Notes under the pieces: generated by a model
What the model saw: the letters and a program-made list of their open reading frames with translations, nothing else
Told to the model about the DNA's origin: nothing
The model's database searches: none
Program-made: the position numbers and the translations under genes
DNA from: a virus
DNA length: 45,797 bases
Strand: one strand, 5' to 3'
Virus record (IMG/VR): IMGVR_UViG_3300005253_000046
Location: 1-45,797 of that record
Shown: in pieces, positions 1 through 45,797 of the stretch
Layout of the letters: the number at the start of each line of letters is the position of its first letter
Numbering within the stretch: the first letter of the stretch is position 1

Positions 1-121
1 ATTATCGATGATAAAAGACTTCCACATGATCTTAGAGCCAATCTTCCGGCCTTGCGCCAGGGGATTGCTGAAGGATGCACCGGCAGGCGTAATGTACGAC
101 TGCAAGGACATACCATTCAAC
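1..121. repeat. Direct terminal repeat, left copy (circular closure)
   Basis: Bases 1-121 are identical to 45677-45797. The capsid gene reads in frame from one copy into the other side, so the window is one circular (or circularly permuted) genome of 45,676 bp with a 121-base overlap. The overlap is most simply an assembly overlap of a circular or terminally redundant molecule. A real 121-bp terminal repeat cannot be excluded from the sequence. Confidence 0.95.
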
Positions 122-10865: not shown

Positions 10866-12371
10866 CTACACTGGTGTTACTCGATCCATCCAGTCCCAAT
10901 CGTTTTTGGGAGTTTGGTTGGACCCGAGAATTATACCTTGATTAAATTCGTTAGACAAGGGTTTGTAGAACAGCATACAAAAGTACCTTATCGTGTCCGA
11001 AAGGTTATCGTAATAACCATCTTTCACTGGTTTCTTATTGAGTACGTCTTGTGAACTGGGGCGTTCCTTAGGGTAATGGTAACCACCTGCCATGCCTTCG
11101 ATTGTGGTTCTGCAACGACGGTGAAACATGAGTATAGGCCAACCACACTTGCACTTGCGACCCAAGCACTTACGTACTTCGTCCAATCCCGGGTCTATGT
11201 CCTTGAATTTCTTGTATTTGAAGTGCAGACCAAAGCCGCCTTCAGCCGGGTCTTTACCTTTTGGCGCGACAGGGCGGGAGAGGCGAATAATAGGTCCTGG
11301 GCCGCGGTCTGAGCGCTGGGCACCAGCAGCGTCCCCACCATCAAGGACAAGATTGCGCCCAGCTTTCAATACGTAGGTAAAGTCACCCTTTGTCATGTTG
11401 ATAACATCCGTAGCAAAATCATGGGCTTCCTGGTTCTCCCCGAGTCGCTCTTGTAACACCACCCAGTGCAAAGTGCGCTCTTTGCACCTGAACATCTGGT
11501 GCCAGGTGCAAGCCGGACGGCGGAAGCCGAAGTCCCAGACGCGGTAGGTCGTCATAATGCGTGTGTCGGGATCTCCCACATGTTTGAGGAGATTGAACAT
11601 TGGGTAGACAGGATCTCCTTCTTGCTGAAAACCGTAATGGCCGTCCAGGATACGCCGGGCCTCAGCCTCGGTATTGCCCTCTAAGATGCCAGCGATGTAC
11701 TCGGAACTGAGAAAGGGGTTGTCATAGGTACTGCTGCGGATCATCCGATAGGTGAGCTTGACTTCCTTGCCTCTGACCTTGACCACCTTGGTTTCATGGC
11801 CTGGTTTGGGCCACATCTTGGCAATCCAGTGCTTATCAGGCGGGGGATTCGTGCAGATCATCCCCTTCAAGTATTTGTCGGCTCGGGGTAGCCTAAGCCT
11901 ACCATTCAGCTTCCGTATGAGATCCTGGGGCTCCTCCTGTGCCTCATCAATGAGATACCACCCATACTCAGGCCCAAGAAAGCGACCGGGGTCCTTGGTC
12001 TCACGGAAGGCTATCTCTGACCCATTGCCGTAGATGATTCTGTGTGGCCAGCCATCCCGCATTTCCCGGGCTACGAACTGTTCGCCGGAACGCTCCAAGA
12101 CTTCGAGGAATATGCGCTCTGTTGAGTCGTGCAGCTTGGGTAGGGTACGCCTGAGTATAATCCCCATGTTACCGGGAATCGATATACTCAAAAGATGCCC
12201 CATGATGACAGCAGCGAGGGACTTTCCTGAGCCATATCCACCGATTAGCGCGATGAACCGTTCAGAGGCATCAAGGAACTCCTGCTGAAGGGTCAAGATA
12301 TGTTTGTGCAGGGGTGTTTTGTCCTTGCAATCTTCGATGGTGCAAGGAGGAAACAAGTCGATTGTTTTCAC
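10866..12371 (-). CDS. terL: Terminase large subunit
   Basis: 501 residues. It is the packaging motor with an N-terminal ATPase and C-terminal nuclease. Visible motifs: Walker A G-G-Y-G-S-G-K-S at residues 44-51, Walker B 'YLIDEAQ' with Asp/Glu at 142-143, a TNPP motif near 174 (coupling motif position), and the nuclease opening 'RVWDFGFRRP' with Asp at about 280. Full length for the family. It starts at 12371, overlapping the upstream gene by a few bases, and is followed after 99 bases by the portal gene. Confidence 0.92.
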   Translation of the reverse strand: MKTIDLFPPCTIEDCKDKTPLHKHILTLQQEFLDASERFIALIGGYGSGKSLAAVIMGHLLSISIPGNMGIILRRTLPKLHDSTERIFLEVLERSGEQFVAREMRDGWPHRIIYGNGSEIAFRETKDPGRFLGPEYGWYLIDEAQEEPQDLIRKLNGRLRLPRADKYLKGMICTNPPPDKHWIAKMWPKPGHETKVVKVRGKEVKLTYRMIRSSTYDNPFLSSEYIAGILEGNTEAEARRILDGHYGFQQEGDPVYPMFNLLKHVGDPDTRIMTTYRVWDFGFRRPACTWHQMFRCKERTLHWVVLQERLGENQEAHDFATDVINMTKGDFTYVLKAGRNLVLDGGDAAGAQRSDRGPGPIIRLSRPVAPKGKDPAEGGFGLHFKYKKFKDIDPGLDEVRKCLGRKCKCGWPILMFHRRCRTTIEGMAGGYHYPKERPSSQDVLNKKPVKDGYYDNLSDTIRYFCMLFYKPLSNEFNQGIILGSNQTPKNDWDWMDRVTPV

Positions 12372-13025: not shown

Positions 13026-13186
13026 CTGGCCTCCCAAAGGACCTTGGTGACTTTCTTGTTTAGCTTGCAGTGGTCACAAGCCTTCTCGGACTTTACTAAG
13101 TCGTGGTCAAAGGAACTATGAGAGTCGTACTGAGCCATTTTCCTCAGTAGGATACGGAGGTTAATTATCTCCTGTCGTTCTTCCAT
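13022..13186 (-). CDS. Small Cx2C protein, first gene of late operon
   Basis: 54 residues (MEERQEIINLRILLRKMAQY...), with one CxxC pair ('ACDHCK'), otherwise charged helix. ATG 13186 has GGAG seven bases upstream and its stop overlaps the next start. It is the promoter-proximal gene of the leftward packaging/virion operon; the two minus-strand sigma-54-type motifs (13767-13781, 13856-13870) point towards it. Function unknown. Confidence 0.5.
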   Translation of the reverse strand: MEERQEIINLRILLRKMAQYDSHSSFDHDLVKSEKACDHCKLNKKVTKVLWEAR

Positions 13187-13418
13187 TTTATACTCCGGGT
13201 TTTATTGGGGTGGTATCTCGCATGGTCAAAGGGTACTCCGCGAGGGGAGCCTTGTCAAGCGTTCAGGATTTACCCCCGTTCGAAAAAACTACACGGTGGC
13301 AAAACGCAGACAGTTAGCGACAAGTGCCGACACTTTACCACGGTCTTCGACCAGTGCGAACGGGATTCGACCAGGGGCTTTATAACCGAGCGCGGCACCC
13401 GCGCGAGGCCCAGGTTTC

Positions 13419-13442
13419 CAAGTAGCTGTAATAGCTCAGGTT
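13419..13442 (+). repeat. 24-base direct repeat, copy 1
   Basis: CAAGTAG-2-GTAAT-3-T-1-AGGTT. It matches copy 2 at 13469-13492 at 18 of 24 positions, start to start 50 bases apart (close to five helical turns). Spacing and conservation suggest a protein-binding site pair. Confidence 0.5.
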
Positions 13443-13468
13443 TGTTAAGTGATGAATAATGTGACCTT

Positions 13469-13492
13469 CAAGTAGTCGTAATCATTGAGGTT
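13469..13492 (+). repeat. 24-base direct repeat, copy 2
   Basis: Second copy of the element at 13419-13442, with CAAGTAG, GTAAT and AGGTT blocks conserved and the spacers between them changed. This is the pattern expected of a bound site rather than of a recent duplication. Confidence 0.5.
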
Positions 13493-13679
13493 CTCCAGGC
13501 GCGCAGTGCTTTGCTATTGACATCAGGGGTCCCGTGGTCAAGCCAAGGGTTGTCATATTGCAACCACCCTAAATAGGCCACCCGGATTAGTTTTGACTGG
13601 TGTAAGGTTTTGGTGCTGTGTGCGGGTTAGGTTTTCTCCCCGTGGTGGCGCGCTCTCAAACACCAGCAGGGCAATGTGG

Positions 13680-13706
13680 GGGAACCCGAGAACTTTCAGG
13701 GTTCCC
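13680..13706. repeat. Inverted repeat GGGAACCC / GGGTTCCC (candidate activator site or hairpin)
   Basis: Perfect 8-base arms (13680-13687 and 13699-13706) around an 11-base centre. It lies 42 bases upstream of the first sigma-54-type motif. It could be an enhancer-binding-protein site or an RNA hairpin. No T-run follows on the plus strand, so an intrinsic terminator is less likely. Confidence 0.45.
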
Positions 13707-13747
13707 AACCAACGGGCCTGGTCAAAGGTCTGCCGGTCACGTCAAAC

Positions 13748-13762
13748 TGGCATGGGTCTTGC
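13748..13762 (+). promoter_or_regulatory. Sigma-54-type promoter motif P1 (rightward)
   Basis: TGGCAT-N5-TTGC, matching the -24/-12 consensus TGGCAY-N5-TTGC with exact spacing. The predicted start is near 13774. It faces motif P2 on the other strand with only four bases between the two -12 elements, so both cannot be occupied at once. Confidence 0.6.
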
Positions 13763-13766
13763 GATA

Positions 13767-13781
13767 GCAAAGGTCATGCCA
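13767..13781 (-). promoter_or_regulatory. Sigma-54-type promoter motif P2 (leftward)
   Basis: Reads TGGCAT-N5-TTGC on the minus strand (13781 to 13767). Predicted start near 13755, heading towards the packaging genes that begin at 13186, which would leave a long untranslated leader. Together with P1 it forms an imperfect 34-base palindrome. Confidence 0.55.
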
Positions 13782-13788
13782 ACTTAGC

Positions 13789-13803
13789 TGGCACGAGTCT
13801 TGC
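13789..13803 (+). promoter_or_regulatory. Sigma-54-type promoter motif P3 (rightward)
   Basis: TGGCAC-GAGTC-TTGC followed by TT, a perfect match to the full consensus TGGCACG-N4-TTGCW. Predicted start near 13815. No gene begins directly downstream; a long leader or non-coding transcript reading towards the early genes would result. Confidence 0.65.
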
Positions 13804-13855
13804 TTGCCCGCTTCGCGGTTGGCGTGGTTATTACGTGTCGGGCCGGGCCGAGCCA

Positions 13856-13870
13856 GCAAATGTAATGCCA
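13856..13870 (-). promoter_or_regulatory. Sigma-54-type promoter motif P4 (leftward)
   Basis: Minus strand TGGCAT-TACAT-TTGC (13870 to 13856). Second leftward motif; a candidate late-operon promoter with a long leader. It lies 39 bases from the first of the 33-base-spaced repeats. Confidence 0.55.
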
Positions 13871-13908
13871 GTCTGCGTAATTGCCAGAATGTGGTAACGT
13901 GCCACCAG

Positions 13909-13928
13909 GTGTAAACCACGTGGACAGT
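13909..13928 (+). repeat. Phased repeat, copy 1 (GTGTAAAC-N7-ACAGT)
   Basis: GTGTAAAC followed by seven bases containing CGT and then ACAGT. Copy 2 begins exactly 33 bases later (about three helical turns). Located between leftward P4 and rightward P5, at typical upstream-activator distance (about 170-190 bases) from P5 at 14101. Confidence 0.55.
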
Positions 13929-13941
13929 AACTTCGTGTACA

Positions 13942-13961
13942 GTGTAAACTTCGTTGACAGT
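13942..13961 (+). repeat. Phased repeat, copy 2 (GTGTAAAC-N7-ACAGT)
   Basis: Same GTGTAAAC and ACAGT blocks as copy 1 with a variable middle, and a further ACTTCGT-GTACAGT unit lies between the copies. The end includes TTGACA, a possible sigma-70 -35 box, but I find no good -10 at 16-18 bases. Confidence 0.5.
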
Positions 13962-14100
13962 CTTACATTACTAGCCAATTCTACCATATTGCGGCATTGT
14001 AACGTAAAATTGTATGCCTTTTGAGCACCTGAGCGTTACTTCAGACGGAACAATGACCGCTCTCAATACAAAGGTCAATGATTACAAGGTTTGCTTGTGT

Positions 14101-14115
14101 TGGCACGGCTATTGC
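14101..14115 (+). promoter_or_regulatory. Sigma-54-type promoter motif P5 (rightward)
   Basis: TGGCAC-GGCTA-TTGC followed by TT, perfect match to the consensus. Predicted start near 14127, only two bases before the ATG of the first small gene (14129), which would make that message leaderless. Confidence 0.65.
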
Positions 14116-14128
14116 TTATTCAAAGGGC

Positions 14129-14263
14129 ATGACGAACAAACTAAAAGCACCAAAGGACACCATTGCTGTAATTGACAACCTTGACTTGACCAGTTGGGTG
14201 CTGGCAGGTTGGGCTTTAATTGAATCTGTGTCCATTGGCCAAGCAAAGATTATTCGTTTGTAG
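14129..14263 (+). CDS. Possible small protein after P5 (uncertain)
   Basis: 44 residues from ATG 14129 (MTNKLKAPKDTIAVIDNLDL...). Protein-like composition, but no proper ribosome site: AAAGGG ends one base before the ATG. If transcription starts at the sigma-54-type motif P5, the message would be practically leaderless. Kept at low confidence. Confidence 0.35.
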   Translation: MTNKLKAPKDTIAVIDNLDLTSWVLAGWALIESVSIGQAKIIRL

Positions 14264-14266
14264 GCT

Positions 14267-14281
14267 TGGCACGCGGTTTGC
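14267..14281 (+). promoter_or_regulatory. Sigma-54-type promoter motif P6 (rightward)
   Basis: TGGCAC-GCGGT-TTGC followed by TT, perfect match. The predicted start near 14293 falls just before the TAAGGAG ribosome site (14294-14300) of the gene at 14309, so the geometry fits a real promoter with a minimal leader. Confidence 0.75.
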
Positions 14282-14308
14282 TTAACTAAAGGGTAAGGAG
14301 AACAAACT

Positions 14309-14443
14309 ATGATACACCTGCACACTTGTCCTAATTGCAAAGAACAATGCCCTTGTAGCCACCTTGTTTGTAAGAAGTTAGATTCAATTGTTTGTTGGGC
14401 TTGCAAGTACCTAATGCGGGCAAACTATCATGATGCTAGATAA
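14309..14443 (+). CDS. Cysteine-rich mini-protein (zinc-binding type)
   Basis: 44 residues with seven cysteines, including CPNC and 'CxxC...CWAC' pairs, likely binding one or two zinc ions. First gene behind P6, with TAAGGAG at the right distance from ATG 14309. Possibly a host-takeover peptide, as promoter-proximal early genes often are; no family recognised. Confidence 0.6.
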   Translation: MIHLHTCPNCKEQCPCSHLVCKKLDSIVCWACKYLMRANYHDAR

Positions 14444-14456
14444 AGGAGAATAGAAT

Positions 14457-14606
14457 ATGAACAGGCGATACCGTTATTACAATGCCTACCTCTTGCTGGC
14501 AATGTTTATGACCCGACTAGGGTTGACGGAAATAGATAGGCCAAATCTCCGAGTCAAAAACTTTGATGGTGAAGCTTACGGGGTTCGAGTAAGATACTTT
14601 GGGTAA
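14457..14606 (+). CDS. Small early protein, unknown
   Basis: 49 residues (MNRRYRYYNAYLLLAMFMTR...), basic/aromatic N-terminus, amphipathic helix, then a short beta-type C-terminus. AAAGGAG is upstream of ATG 14457. Packed between two other early genes. Confidence 0.5.
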   Translation: MNRRYRYYNAYLLLAMFMTRLGLTEIDRPNLRVKNFDGEAYGVRVRYFG

Positions 14607-14617
14607 GGGGGCAAACA

Positions 14618-14914
14618 ATGAACCGCAAAGAGTATAAAGACTTTGAGGATAGAGTTGAACAATTTTTCGAGGTAGAGGGCATTACTAACTTGTCCTCTAT
14701 AGATCCTGAACCCGAAGCTTACTTTTCAACCAGACCGTGTGATTGCTGTCAAAGACACTGGCATGGTGATCGGGAAGATGCTAACGGTTATAATCCCGCC
14801 ACTAAGGAAATTTACGAGTATTCTGTTTGCTCTGATTGCCTTTATTATGCTGAGTATGGTCGATTAAACGATATGACCATGTTAGAGCTAGGGGAAGAGG
14901 GGCAAAGCTTATGA
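14618..14914 (+). CDS. Zinc-ribbon early protein
   Basis: 98 residues. A helical N-terminus is followed by 'PCDCCQRHWHGDRED...CSDCLYYAEYG', two Cys pairs (about residues 41-44 and 71-74) that make a plausible zinc ribbon. A polar protein of this layout recurs in early regions of many phages; the function is unknown. AAGGGGG lies upstream, and the stop overlaps the start of the SprT-like gene. Confidence 0.6.
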   Translation: MNRKEYKDFEDRVEQFFEVEGITNLSSIDPEPEAYFSTRPCDCCQRHWHGDREDANGYNPATKEIYEYSVCSDCLYYAEYGRLNDMTMLELGEEGQSL

Positions 14915-15486
14915 ACCGTGAGGGGTACCTTGAATTAGCGACAAGCGAATTGTCTGACTATATCAGCAAAGCAGGCTACACCATGCCAAAGATCAAAGTG
15001 TCGGCTGGTTGGCCTTCCACTAAGGCCTTCTCAACTAAGAGTCGTAAGCTAGGTGAATGCTGGCATCACGAAGCAATCAATCAAGAGGCGTCTCACATTT
15101 TCATAAGCCCCTATTTGTCCGATACGGTAACTGTTTTGGGGGTGTTAGTGCATGAGATAGGTCACGCTATCTTGCCACAAGAGGCAAAGCACAAGAAGGC
15201 GTTTAAACAGTATATGACTGCGGTGGACCTAACAGGCAAAGCAACGGCAACGGAGGTTGGTGAAGTCTTGAAAAGCTTCATAGACTTGCTCATTGATCGG
15301 GTTGGCACCTATCCACACGAAAGCATTGACAAAGGTCCAAAGCAGAAAAAACAAACTACCAGACTACGCCTTTGGACATGTGAAGGCTGTGATTTAAAGA
15401 TCCGCGTTGCCAAAGATGACCTGAACATTCTTTGCATGGCATGTGATTTGCAGTTTGTAAAGGTTGAAAAACAGGAGGTAGACTAA
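14911..15486 (+). CDS. SprT-like metallopeptidase with C-terminal zinc ribbon
   Basis: 191 residues. Catalytic zinc motif H-E-I-G-H at residues 81-85, preceded by a SprT-like alpha/beta segment and followed, as in the SprT/Spartan family, by a helical region and a C-terminal Cys4 zinc ribbon ('CEGC...CMAC', about 157-182). Family members cleave DNA-protein crosslinks or act on other nucleic-acid-bound proteins, so the phage version may remove host proteins from DNA. Start at ATG 14911 overlaps the previous stop (ATGA). Confidence 0.8.
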   Translation: MNREGYLELATSELSDYISKAGYTMPKIKVSAGWPSTKAFSTKSRKLGECWHHEAINQEASHIFISPYLSDTVTVLGVLVHEIGHAILPQEAKHKKAFKQYMTAVDLTGKATATEVGEVLKSFIDLLIDRVGTYPHESIDKGPKQKKQTTRLRLWTCEGCDLKIRVAKDDLNILCMACDLQFVKVEKQEVD

Positions 15487-15671
15487 TGAAAGAGTACAAA
15501 AAAGTAAGGGCGTCTGATCATTTCGGGTATTTGGGTAGCAGTGAAAAGTCTAAGCTTACAAATGGTCAGACGGGCATAGACAAGAAAGAAAACGTACTTG
15601 TTGTTTGCTGCTCGAACTGTGGGGATTACTCCCACATAGACTTGAACAAATTGAAAGAGGTAACAAAGTGA
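15486..15671 (+). CDS. Small CxxC protein
   Basis: 61 residues, with 'VVCCSNCGDY' at about 40-50 as a half zinc knuckle; the rest is charged. ATG overlaps the SprT-like stop (TAATG) and AGGAGG is just upstream. Function unknown. Confidence 0.55.
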   Translation: MKEYKKVRASDHFGYLGSSEKSKLTNGQTGIDKKENVLVVCCSNCGDYSHIDLNKLKEVTK

Positions 15672-15850
15672 GCGCTTCAATCTTTATCAGTTTGCGGCAT
15701 AAGCTTTGCGAACAACCCAAACAATACAAGTTCTGCCTTGAATGCAAAGGCGATCGGTTGCATATTATCAACCGATACGATAAAGCAACGGTGAATTTGA
15801 AAATGTATCATTTCACTTGTCTGAATTGCTTTCACGAAGGGGAAGAATAA
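15668..15850 (+). CDS. Small zinc-ribbon protein, GTG start
   Basis: 60 residues from GTG 15668 (overlapping the previous stop as GTGA, with AAAGAGG upstream). Two Cys pairs 'CLEC' and 'CLNC' about 30 residues apart form a simple zinc ribbon. A near-match to the sigma-54 core (first T changed to C) lies inside it at 15695-15709. Confidence 0.55.
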   Translation: MSASIFISLRHKLCEQPKQYKFCLECKGDRLHIINRYDKATVNLKMYHFTCLNCFHEGEE

Positions 15851-15924
15851 TGCTTACAATTGCGGGTGGGATAGTTATAGCTTGGGTGGTTATAGGTTTA
15901 CTTTGTGCCCTTTTGGACGGTTGA
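15850..15924 (+). CDS. Single-helix membrane peptide
   Basis: 24 residues, one hydrophobic helix (MLTIAGGIVIAWVVIGLLCA...). ATG overlaps the previous stop (TAATG) and a purine-rich GAAGGGGAAG lies upstream. Typical early membrane micropeptide; function unknown. Confidence 0.45.
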   Translation: MLTIAGGIVIAWVVIGLLCALLDG

Positions 15925-15999
15925 ACCACAATGATACCACAGTCCCAAAATTAAACAAGGTGCTTTAGGATTATGTCAAGCATTTGTTAGCAGCATAAC

Positions 16000-16014
16000 T
16001 GGCATGGAATTTGC
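16000..16014 (+). promoter_or_regulatory. Sigma-54-type promoter motif P7 (rightward, inside early operon)
   Basis: TGGCAT-GGAAT-TTGC followed by TA. The predicted start near 16026 is just before the AAAGGAG site (16029-16035) of the gene at 16042, the same geometry as P6. It lies in a genuine intergenic gap (15925-16041). Confidence 0.7.
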
Positions 16015-16041: not shown

Positions 16042-16137
16042 ATGGAAATATATTTGCTTATCTTTCGTGTTTTGGTTGTTTGGGTTATAGGTCTTGCATT
16101 GTTTAAGCGCAGGAAAATGAAAGGAGTAACAAAATAA
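16042..16137 (+). CDS. Single-helix membrane peptide behind P7
   Basis: 31 residues: one membrane helix (about 3-21) and a basic tail. AAAGGAG site and ATG 16042 directly behind the P7 motif. Its end carries the ribosome site of the next, AUA-started gene. Function unknown. Confidence 0.5.
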   Translation: MEIYLLIFRVLVVWVIGLALFKRRKMKGVTK

Positions 16138-45619: not shown

Positions 45620-45797
45620 TTACGACGGCAGTTGCGCGCTGTAGGTGGACGAAGACTCAAGTCTCACGAAGTAGTCATTATCGATGATAAAAGACTTCCA
45701 CATGATCTTAGAGCCAATCTTCCGGCCTTGCGCCAGGGGATTGCTGAAGGATGCACCGGCAGGCGTAATGTACGACTGCAAGGACATACCATTCAAC
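45620..45797 (-). CDS. Major capsid protein, 3' end (continues at left edge of window)
   Basis: The last part of the capsid gene: bases 45676-45620 encode the final 18 residues and the TAA (45622-45620). Bases 45677-45797 duplicate window positions 1-121. The frame is continuous through the join with the segment at 1-1233, which proves the circular arrangement. Confidence 0.8.
   Translation of the reverse strand, partial: LNGMSLQSYITPAGASFSNPLAQGRKIGSKIMWKSFIIDNDYFVRLESSSTYSAQLPS
45677..45797. repeat. Direct terminal repeat, right copy
   Basis: Identical to bases 1-121; see the left copy. Confidence 0.95.

What the first reader, a model, noticed from the sequence alone, without database searches (positions are those of the whole stretch)
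13748..16014. Cluster of seven sigma-54 (-24/-12) promoter motifs controlling a phage
Seen directly: TGGCAY-N5-TTGC occurs exactly at 13748, 13789, 14101, 14267 and 16000 (plus strand) and at 13767-13781 and 13856-13870 (minus strand). By eye I find no other exact match in the window. A 9.5-base-equivalent pattern predicts about 0.2 matches in 45.8 kb on both strands, and these seven sit in 2.3 kb at the divergent control region. P6 and P7 place the predicted start just before a ribosome site. Phages are known mostly for sigma-70, own sigma factors or own polymerase. A sigma-54-driven early programme would tie infection to host enhancer-binding proteins and nitrogen, stress or envelope signalling. 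No activator of the NtrC/PspF kind is encoded here, so the host must supply it.
Basis: partly seen in the sequence, partly recalled or inferred. Interest (0 to 1): 0.88.

Follow-up and report, generated by a model that had tools for sequence, protein, structure and literature searches.

The report
Mirror-image sigma-54 sites in phages
The control region of this phage carries eight copies of the bacterial sigma-54 promoter signal, two of them set face to face, and the same mirror-image arrangement recurs in many unrelated environmental phages but hardly ever in bacterial chromosomes, which suggests that many phages exploit a host stress and nutrient transcription factor they were not known to use.

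Summary
The motifs are real. There are eight exact TGGCAYN5TTGC sites, not seven (15437 was missed), against 0.25 expected. A matrix built from ChIP-mapped Salmonella sigma-54 sites ranks seven of them as the top seven sites of the whole genome. The genome is probably complete (121-bp terminal repeat) and encodes no detected RpoN or enhancer-binding protein. Relatives that include the junction also have such sites, and TGGCACG is the only 7-mer shared by all seven junctions examined. Three or four dispersed + strand sites place the predicted start just before a small early gene. At the junction, 13748(+) and 13767(-) face each other, so their predicted starts diverge. In 257 Gb of bacterial genomes there are 22 matches. 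Dyads are non-coding and lie upstream of terL in 63 of 64 cases. The halves do not covary, so it is not a hairpin. Identity as host sigma-54 sites is strongly supported. Use of the arrays as promoters is inferred: clustered sites are not oriented towards genes, and many arrays are flanked by outward sigma-70 promoters.

The parts
13748..13762 (+). sigma-54 site TGGCATGGGTCTTGC, left half of the face-to-face dyad; predicted +1 about 13774, rightward
13767..13781 (-). sigma-54 site TGGCATGACCTTTGC, right half of the face-to-face dyad; predicted +1 about 13755, leftward to the late module; best Salmonella-matrix score in the window (21.3)
13748..13781 (.). 34-bp mirror-image dyad TGGCATG-N4-TTGC-GATA-GCAA-N4-CATGCCA
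   Evidence: direct reading; same element in L009, L010 and twice in G017, and in at least 120 viral stretches
13789..13803 (+). sigma-54 site TGGCACGAGTCTTGC, back to back with 13767(-) (7 bp between the -24 elements), 41 bp from 13748; predicted +1 about 13815
13856..13870 (-). sigma-54 site TGGCATTACATTTGC, weakest by the Salmonella matrix (11.5); points to the late module
14101..14115 (+). sigma-54 site TGGCACGGCTATTGC; predicted +1 about 14127, ATG at 14129 (leaderless or nearly so)
14267..14281 (+). sigma-54 site TGGCACGCGGTTTGC; predicted +1 about 14293, then AAGGAG and ATG at 14309
16000..16014 (+). sigma-54 site TGGCATGGAATTTGC; predicted +1 about 16026, then AAAGGAG and ATG at 16042
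13038..14128 (.). non-coding divergent control region between the leftward late module and the rightward early module
   Evidence: GC skew changes sign here
13909..13964 (+). direct repeats GTGTAAAC-N2-CGT-N-GACAGT and AACTTCGT-N2-ACAGT, about 165-220 bp upstream of the 14101 start: candidate enhancer (UAS) sites, inferred only
14129..14263 (+). small ORF after 14101 (44 aa, unknown)
14309..14443 (+). small ORF after 14267 (44 aa, cysteine-rich, unknown)
15486..15671 (+). small ORF after 15437 (61 aa, unknown); absent from L006
16042..16137 (+). small ORF after 16000 (31 aa, unknown)
14911..15486 (+). SprT-like metallopeptidase (phrog_6361) in the early module; its 3' end holds the 15437 site
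10866..12371 (-). large terminase subunit of the late module, transcribed away from the dyad (about 1.4 kb)

Best explanation
The cluster consists of binding sites for the host's sigma-54 RNA polymerase in the divergent control region of a probably complete, roughly 45.7-kb tailed-phage genome. Shown by sequence: the sites match the sigma-54 consensus at fixed and free positions, have the exact -24/-12 spacing, are conserved in relatives, and lie at the junction of two divergent gene modules. Inferred: 14267, 15437 and 16000 (and probably 14101) are sigma-54 promoters of small early genes. Inferred with less certainty: the face-to-face pair 13748(+)/13767(-) is a symmetrical bidirectional promoter. 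Its two polymerases would overlap, so only one can be seated at a time, and transcripts would start about 19 bp apart and diverge, rightward to the early module and leftward to the terminase module. Firing would need an enhancer-binding protein supplied by the host, because none was detected in the phage. The dyad, often in arrays of about 42-bp period, is a general phage element of which this window is one example.
For: Eight exact sites against 0.25 expected. An independent Salmonella ChIP matrix ranks seven of them 1-7. Free positions of 250 dyad half-sites have nearly the same base frequencies as the Salmonella sites, e.g. -15 T 0.66 vs 0.63 and -11 A/T 0.88 vs 0.91. TGGCACG is the only 7-mer in all seven family junctions, where shuffles give none. 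Starting from the -24 half alone, 13 of 16 TGGCAYG in relatives' junctions have GC at the exact spacing, p about 1e-13. Predicted starts precede a ribosome site and ATG at 14267, 15437 and 16000. Isolated sites in other dyad phages have SD+ATG downstream in their own direction 7 times, in the opposite direction 0 times. The dyad occurs in at least 120 viral stretches; spacing controls of -1 and +1 give 0 and 0. rpoN is present in 8 of 9 bacterial genomes or bins holding a dyad; the ninth is an actinobacterium.
Against: Clustered sites in other phages show no bias towards downstream genes: 72 codirectional, 71 opposite; SD+ATG 41 own, 44 opposite. Many arrays are flanked by strong outward sigma-70 promoters (32 outward, 4 inward at 12 bits or more), so the modules there need not depend on sigma-54. 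The leftward leader in the window would be about 700 nt. No activator site could be proven and the window's host is unknown. Relatives G012, G015 and G019 lack a junction cluster, though G015 has one isolated site. Deposited phages checked have no dyads.
Confidence: 0.62

Rival explanations
1. The sites bind sigma-54 polymerase, but the arrays are not promoters. They hold inactive closed complexes as a decoy (titrating host sigma-54), a roadblock or insulator between divergent sigma-70 promoters, or a repressing complex that is released later.
For: No gene-oriented bias of clustered sites; arrays are closed units that begin with > and end with < (21:7 each); outward sigma-70 promoters flank arrays in other phages; no activator in the phages.
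Against: In the window, dispersed copies sit exactly where promoters should and no strong sigma-70 promoter flanks the array. One cluster of a few sites per genome is a small titration capacity.
Confidence: 0.2
2. The dyad is bound by a different protein, for example the small terminase at a packaging (cos/pac) site or a replication initiator near an origin, and the likeness to sigma-54 sites is coincidental.
For: Dyads lie 0.3-4.3 kb upstream of terL in 63 of 64 cases; usually one cluster per genome; GC skew changes sign at the window's junction; array geometry is regular, with 41-43 bp between same-strand sites.
Against: The motif is constant across about 29 terL clusters and GC contents 0.32-0.68, unlike phage-encoded recognition systems. 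Free positions reproduce the sigma-54 profile. The distance between halves varies by several bases, unlike a rigid dimer site. Single copies precede genes.
Confidence: 0.14
3. The dyads are RNA hairpins such as terminators or processing signals.
For: The dyad is an inverted repeat; a terminator-like call overlaps 13774-13796.
Against: The variable positions of the two halves do not covary; position 5 of the motif (C/T) matches between halves in 0.35 of dyads against 0.51 expected. Single half-sites abound: 248 against 1 for the reversed matrix.
Confidence: 0.02
4. Chance or shared ancestry of an arbitrary repeat.
For: The closest relative, L001, is 99% identical and adds little independent evidence.
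Against: Conserved in relatives at 44-59% terminase identity and in unrelated phages, with zero matches for the shifted-spacing controls.
Confidence: 0.01

Closest known systems
sigma-54 (RpoN)-dependent -24/-12 promoters
   Same: TGGCAYG-N4-TTGCW with GG and GC at the canonical spacing; free positions match Salmonella ChIP sites (sequences from PMC3844500); predicted +1 before the ribosome site at three or four window genes.
   Different: They lie in a phage, in a cluster, and two face each other. In 257 Gb of bacterial genomes the face-to-face form is nearly absent (22 matches, several of them perfect hairpins or in phage-like contigs).
Symmetrical bidirectional sigma-70 promoters (divergent transcription from one shared element; known to me from memory, not looked up)
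   Same: Shared symmetrical element; predicted starts about 19 bp apart and diverging.
   Different: Built of two complete sigma-54 sites; would need an ATP-dependent activator; not shown experimentally.
Phage cos/pac regions
   Same: Non-coding, usually one place per genome, upstream of the terminase genes.
   Different: Constant motif across unrelated terminases; matches a host transcription factor; single copies at gene starts.
Phage operators and dispersed stoperators (repressor site arrays; from memory)
   Same: Repeated asymmetric sites in intergenic regions.
   Different: Those sites are specific to one phage group; this motif is shared by unrelated phages and fits sigma-54.

Membership tests
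sigma-54 promoter | GG (-25/-24) and GC (-13/-12) at fixed spacing within TGGCAC-N5-TTGC | tested here: met
   in relatives 13 of 16 TGGCAYG have GC at exact spacing
sigma-54 promoter | Extended consensus (pyrimidine before, G at -21, T at -15, A/T at -11) | tested here: met
sigma-54 promoter | +1 about 12 nt after the GC, upstream of a gene with a ribosome site | tested here: met
   Met for 14267, 15437 and 16000; 14101 would be leaderless; not met for the four junction sites
sigma-54 promoter | Binding sites for an enhancer-binding protein nearby | tested here: inconclusive
   Repeats at 13909-13964; no common enhancer consensus exists to test against (PMC3844500)
sigma-54 promoter | Host has rpoN and an enhancer-binding protein | not testable with these tools
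   The window's host is unknown; rpoN is found in 8 of 9 genomes or bins holding dyads; no PF00158 in the phages
sigma-54 promoter | RpoN-dependent transcript starts | not testable with these tools
   needs 5'-end mapping
Symmetrical bidirectional promoter | Two opposed elements with diverging starts about 18-20 bp apart | tested here: met
   Geometry only: predicted 13774(+) and 13755(-)
Symmetrical bidirectional promoter | Transcripts in both directions | not testable with these tools
   needs transcript data
cos/pac packaging site | Located just upstream of the terminase genes | tested here: met
   63 of 64 upstream of terL
cos/pac packaging site | Recognition sequence specific to the phage's own terminase | tested here: not met
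   Same motif across about 29 terL clusters
RNA hairpin / terminator | Compensatory pairing between the arms | tested here: not met

The most novel reading that the evidence does not exclude
Face-to-face sigma-54 dyads, singly or in phased arrays, are a widespread, phage-specific control element at the head of the terminase module in many unrelated lineages. Through them phages seat host sigma-54 polymerase as a two-way switch that couples infection to host enhancer-binding-protein signalling.
Probability: 0.5. Interest if true: 0.92.

Novelty: new variant of a known kind. Interest (0 to 1): 0.84.

Why it matters
Phages are thought to rely on sigma-70, their own sigma factors or their own polymerases. 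If true, a whole class of environmental phages ties its gene programme, or its non-coding control region, to sigma-54, a host factor that stays silent until an ATP-driven activator senses nitrogen, envelope or stress state. The dyad is also a promoter geometry that is almost absent from bacterial chromosomes. It gives a simple sequence signature for finding such phages, and a direct test: phage transcription and growth in an rpoN deletion host. It also raises the question of why two sigma-54 sites should face each other.

Tried and rejected
1. Close DNA relatives among deposited phages: none; protein relatives only at 20-30%. 2. Terminase relatives in bacterial genomes: none. 3. Phage-encoded RpoN (PF00309) in the window: none. 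Activator (PF00158): none in the window, 18 relatives or 50 dyad contigs. 4. A second spacing peak (k=11) was mostly coding homology in terL (WHQMFRCK codons) and was discarded. 5. A missing cluster in the 77% relative G002 is not counter-evidence, because its contig lacks the junction. G012 and G019 really lack sites, and G015 lacks a junction cluster. 6. Hairpin reading rejected by lack of covariation. 7. Simple promoter reading for arrays weakened: no orientation bias. 8. Isolate phages with related terminases (Caulobacter RW, RHph_Y2_11, MMDA13) and uncultured deposited phages (MW202545, MW202477, MW202722): no dyads in the stretches read. 9. Literature: no paper on sigma-54-driven phage programmes or sigma-54 dyads found in the open-access library; subscription journals are not covered. 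11. Order-level sample around the Methylotenera genome: 1 of 399 genomes has the dyad, the one already known.
Full report
OBSERVATION. The pattern TGGCAYN5TTGC has eight exact matches in the window: 13748+, 13767-, 13789+, 13856-, 14101+, 14267+, 15437+ and 16000+. The expected number is 0.25. The excess is confined to near-perfect sites: with two mismatches allowed there are 64 matches against 47 expected. A generic sigma-54 matrix gives the same eight at 16-20 bits, nothing else above 15 bits, and none for the reversed matrix. A matrix made from 29 ChIP-enriched intergenic sigma-54 sites of Salmonella (sequences in PMC3844500) ranks seven of the eight as the best seven places in the genome, at 15-21 bits; the known set has a median of 19. 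13856(-) ranks about ninth.

GENOME. The window has a 121-base direct terminal repeat, so it is probably a complete circular-mapping genome of about 45,676 bp. It is a tailed phage: terminase, head-tail adaptor, baseplate-like, SU10-type adaptor, family A DNA polymerase and Sak4-like proteins were found. Mechanically called ORFs show a rightward module at 14.1-34.4 kb and a leftward structural module running from 13.0 kb through the contig ends to 34.5 kb. They diverge from a non-coding junction at about 13.04-14.13 kb, where GC skew changes sign. Neither RpoN (PF00309) nor an enhancer-binding protein (PF00158) was detected.

ANATOMY. 14267, 15437 and 16000 place the predicted +1 immediately before a Shine-Dalgarno and ATG. 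14101 would give a leaderless start. In the near relative L001/L006 the gene after 15437 is missing, and the site with its leader now precedes the next gene. At the junction, 13748(+) and 13767(-) form TGGCATG-N4-TTGC-GATA-GCAA-N4-CATGCCA. The two -12 elements are 4 bp apart, and the predicted starts (13774 rightward, 13755 leftward) diverge. 13789(+) stands back to back with 13767(-).

CONSERVATION. Terminase relatives were collected from IMG/VR. The relatives and the near-identical L001 that include the junction (L001, L009, L010, G011, G016/L018, G017, G018) have sites there, at 44-59% terminase identity for the aligned relatives other than L001. An unbiased word count over seven junctions finds one 7-mer common to all, TGGCACG (17 copies; shuffles give none). 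Starting from that half alone, 13 of 16 TGGCAYG copies in the relatives carry GC at the exact -13/-12 spacing, all with A or T at -11 (p about 1e-13). Five face-to-face pairs occur in window, L009, L010 and G017 (two), with 4, 4, 5, 6 and 4 bp between the GC elements. G012 and G019 have no sites and G015 only one isolated site. G002, the 77% relative, lacks the junction in its contig.

THE DYAD IS A GENERAL PHAGE ELEMENT. The pattern TGGCAYGN5TGC-N4-6-GCAN5CRTGCCA was scanned through 2.9 million viral contigs. It hit the 120-stretch limit, in contigs of 4-480 kb and GC 0.32-0.68. The same dyad with each half shortened or lengthened by one base gives 0 and 0. Equal base composition predicts about 0.01 per Gb. 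In 257 Gb of bacterial and archaeal genomes there are 22 matches. Several of these are perfect hairpins, and the ones with arrays lie in short bin contigs (L247, L253) or a Methylotenera prophage (L232; protease, portal, GpA-type terminase and endolysin). rpoN is present in 8 of 9 such genomes or bins; the ninth is Brachybacterium. A sample of 399 genomes from the order of the Methylotenera genome holds no other dyad.

PROPERTIES. Of 126 unique dyads, 6 lie in ORFs of 600 nt or more, against 46% at random. Near the dyads are 248 further strong sites, against 1 for the reversed matrix, in 953 kb. In whole contigs the count is 107 against 5 in 1.22 Mb, mostly one cluster per genome. Start-to-start distances peak at 19-21 (face to face), 22-23 (back to back) and 43 (same strand). 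Dyads are upstream of terL in 63 of 64 cases, 0.3-4.3 kb away, across about 29 terL clusters. They favour divergent junctions (23% vs 7% random) and avoid same-direction neighbourhoods (10% vs 40%). Free positions match the Salmonella sigma-54 profile. The two halves vary independently, and position 5 of the motif (C/T) matches less often than expected (0.35 vs 0.51), so the dyad is not a hairpin.

MECHANISM. Shown by sequence: sigma-54-type sites, their geometry, position and conservation. Inferred: binding by host sigma-54 holoenzyme (about 0.85). Inferred: dispersed + strand sites are promoters (about 0.7), supported by their gene-start positions here and by isolated sites elsewhere (SD+ATG 7 in own direction, 0 opposite). 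Less certain: junction dyads act as bidirectional promoters (about 0.5). Against that, clustered sites are not oriented to genes and strong outward sigma-70 promoters flank many arrays (32 vs 4), although not in this window. Decoy, roadblock and packaging readings therefore stay open.

KNOWN OR NEW. sigma-54 promoters are well known. I found no open-access paper describing a sigma-54-driven phage programme or the face-to-face dyad. The library omits most subscription journals, so absence there is weak evidence. I rate it a new variant of a known kind.

Noticed in passing
window 1-121 and 45677-45797: 121-base direct terminal repeat: the window is probably a complete circular-mapping or terminally redundant genome, although the tool's listing groups the record as linear.
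   Followed up: yes
L247:600-1090: In a 3-kb contig of a Methylococcaceae bin, a dense array of many mostly degenerate dyads in tandem beside a D5-like primase gene; looks like a mobile element.
   Followed up: partly
L232:1-8000 (Methylotenera sp. U-2020, contig NZ_JAQSCU010000013.1): Prophage-like head module (protease, portal, endolysin, GpA-type TerL) with a dyad 1.8 kb upstream of terL: a lead to a culturable host group.
   Followed up: partly
L120, L126, L180, L190, L191, L194, L198, L221, L224, L230 and others, within 400 bp of the dyads: Near-perfect outward sigma-70 promoters (TTGACA-17-TATAAT) flank many arrays: 32 outward against 4 inward at 12 bits or more.
   Followed up: partly
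G077 (L278, L279): sites between 6.6 and 24.1 kb: Single sigma-54-like sites scattered in either orientation, mostly between genes, several followed after about 5-10 bp by the palindrome CCGGGCNGCCCGG; a different repeated element of unknown role.
   Followed up: no
dyad half-sites in L112-L231: The two halves of a dyad prefer different bases at position 5 of the motif (one C, one T): agreement 0.35 against 0.51 expected, either a strong/weak pairing or avoidance of perfect palindromes.
   Followed up: partly
window 13419-13442/13469-13492, 13340-13354/13360-13374, 13909-13964: Short direct repeats in the non-coding junction, candidate activator or repressor sites.
   Followed up: no
L097:8532 onward; L249:2631-5087: A MoxR-like AAA+ ATPase gene (with a VWA-domain partner in L249) lies near sigma-54 sites or dyads in two unrelated contigs.
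   Followed up: no
L004:2932-2946 (-): A strong single sigma-54-like site just beyond the end of terL, pointing antisense into it.
   Followed up: no
window 15486-15671 versus L006: The 61-aa gene after site 15437 is absent in the 99% relative; the leader is joined directly to the next gene, a clean gene-loss or swap point.
   Followed up: yes
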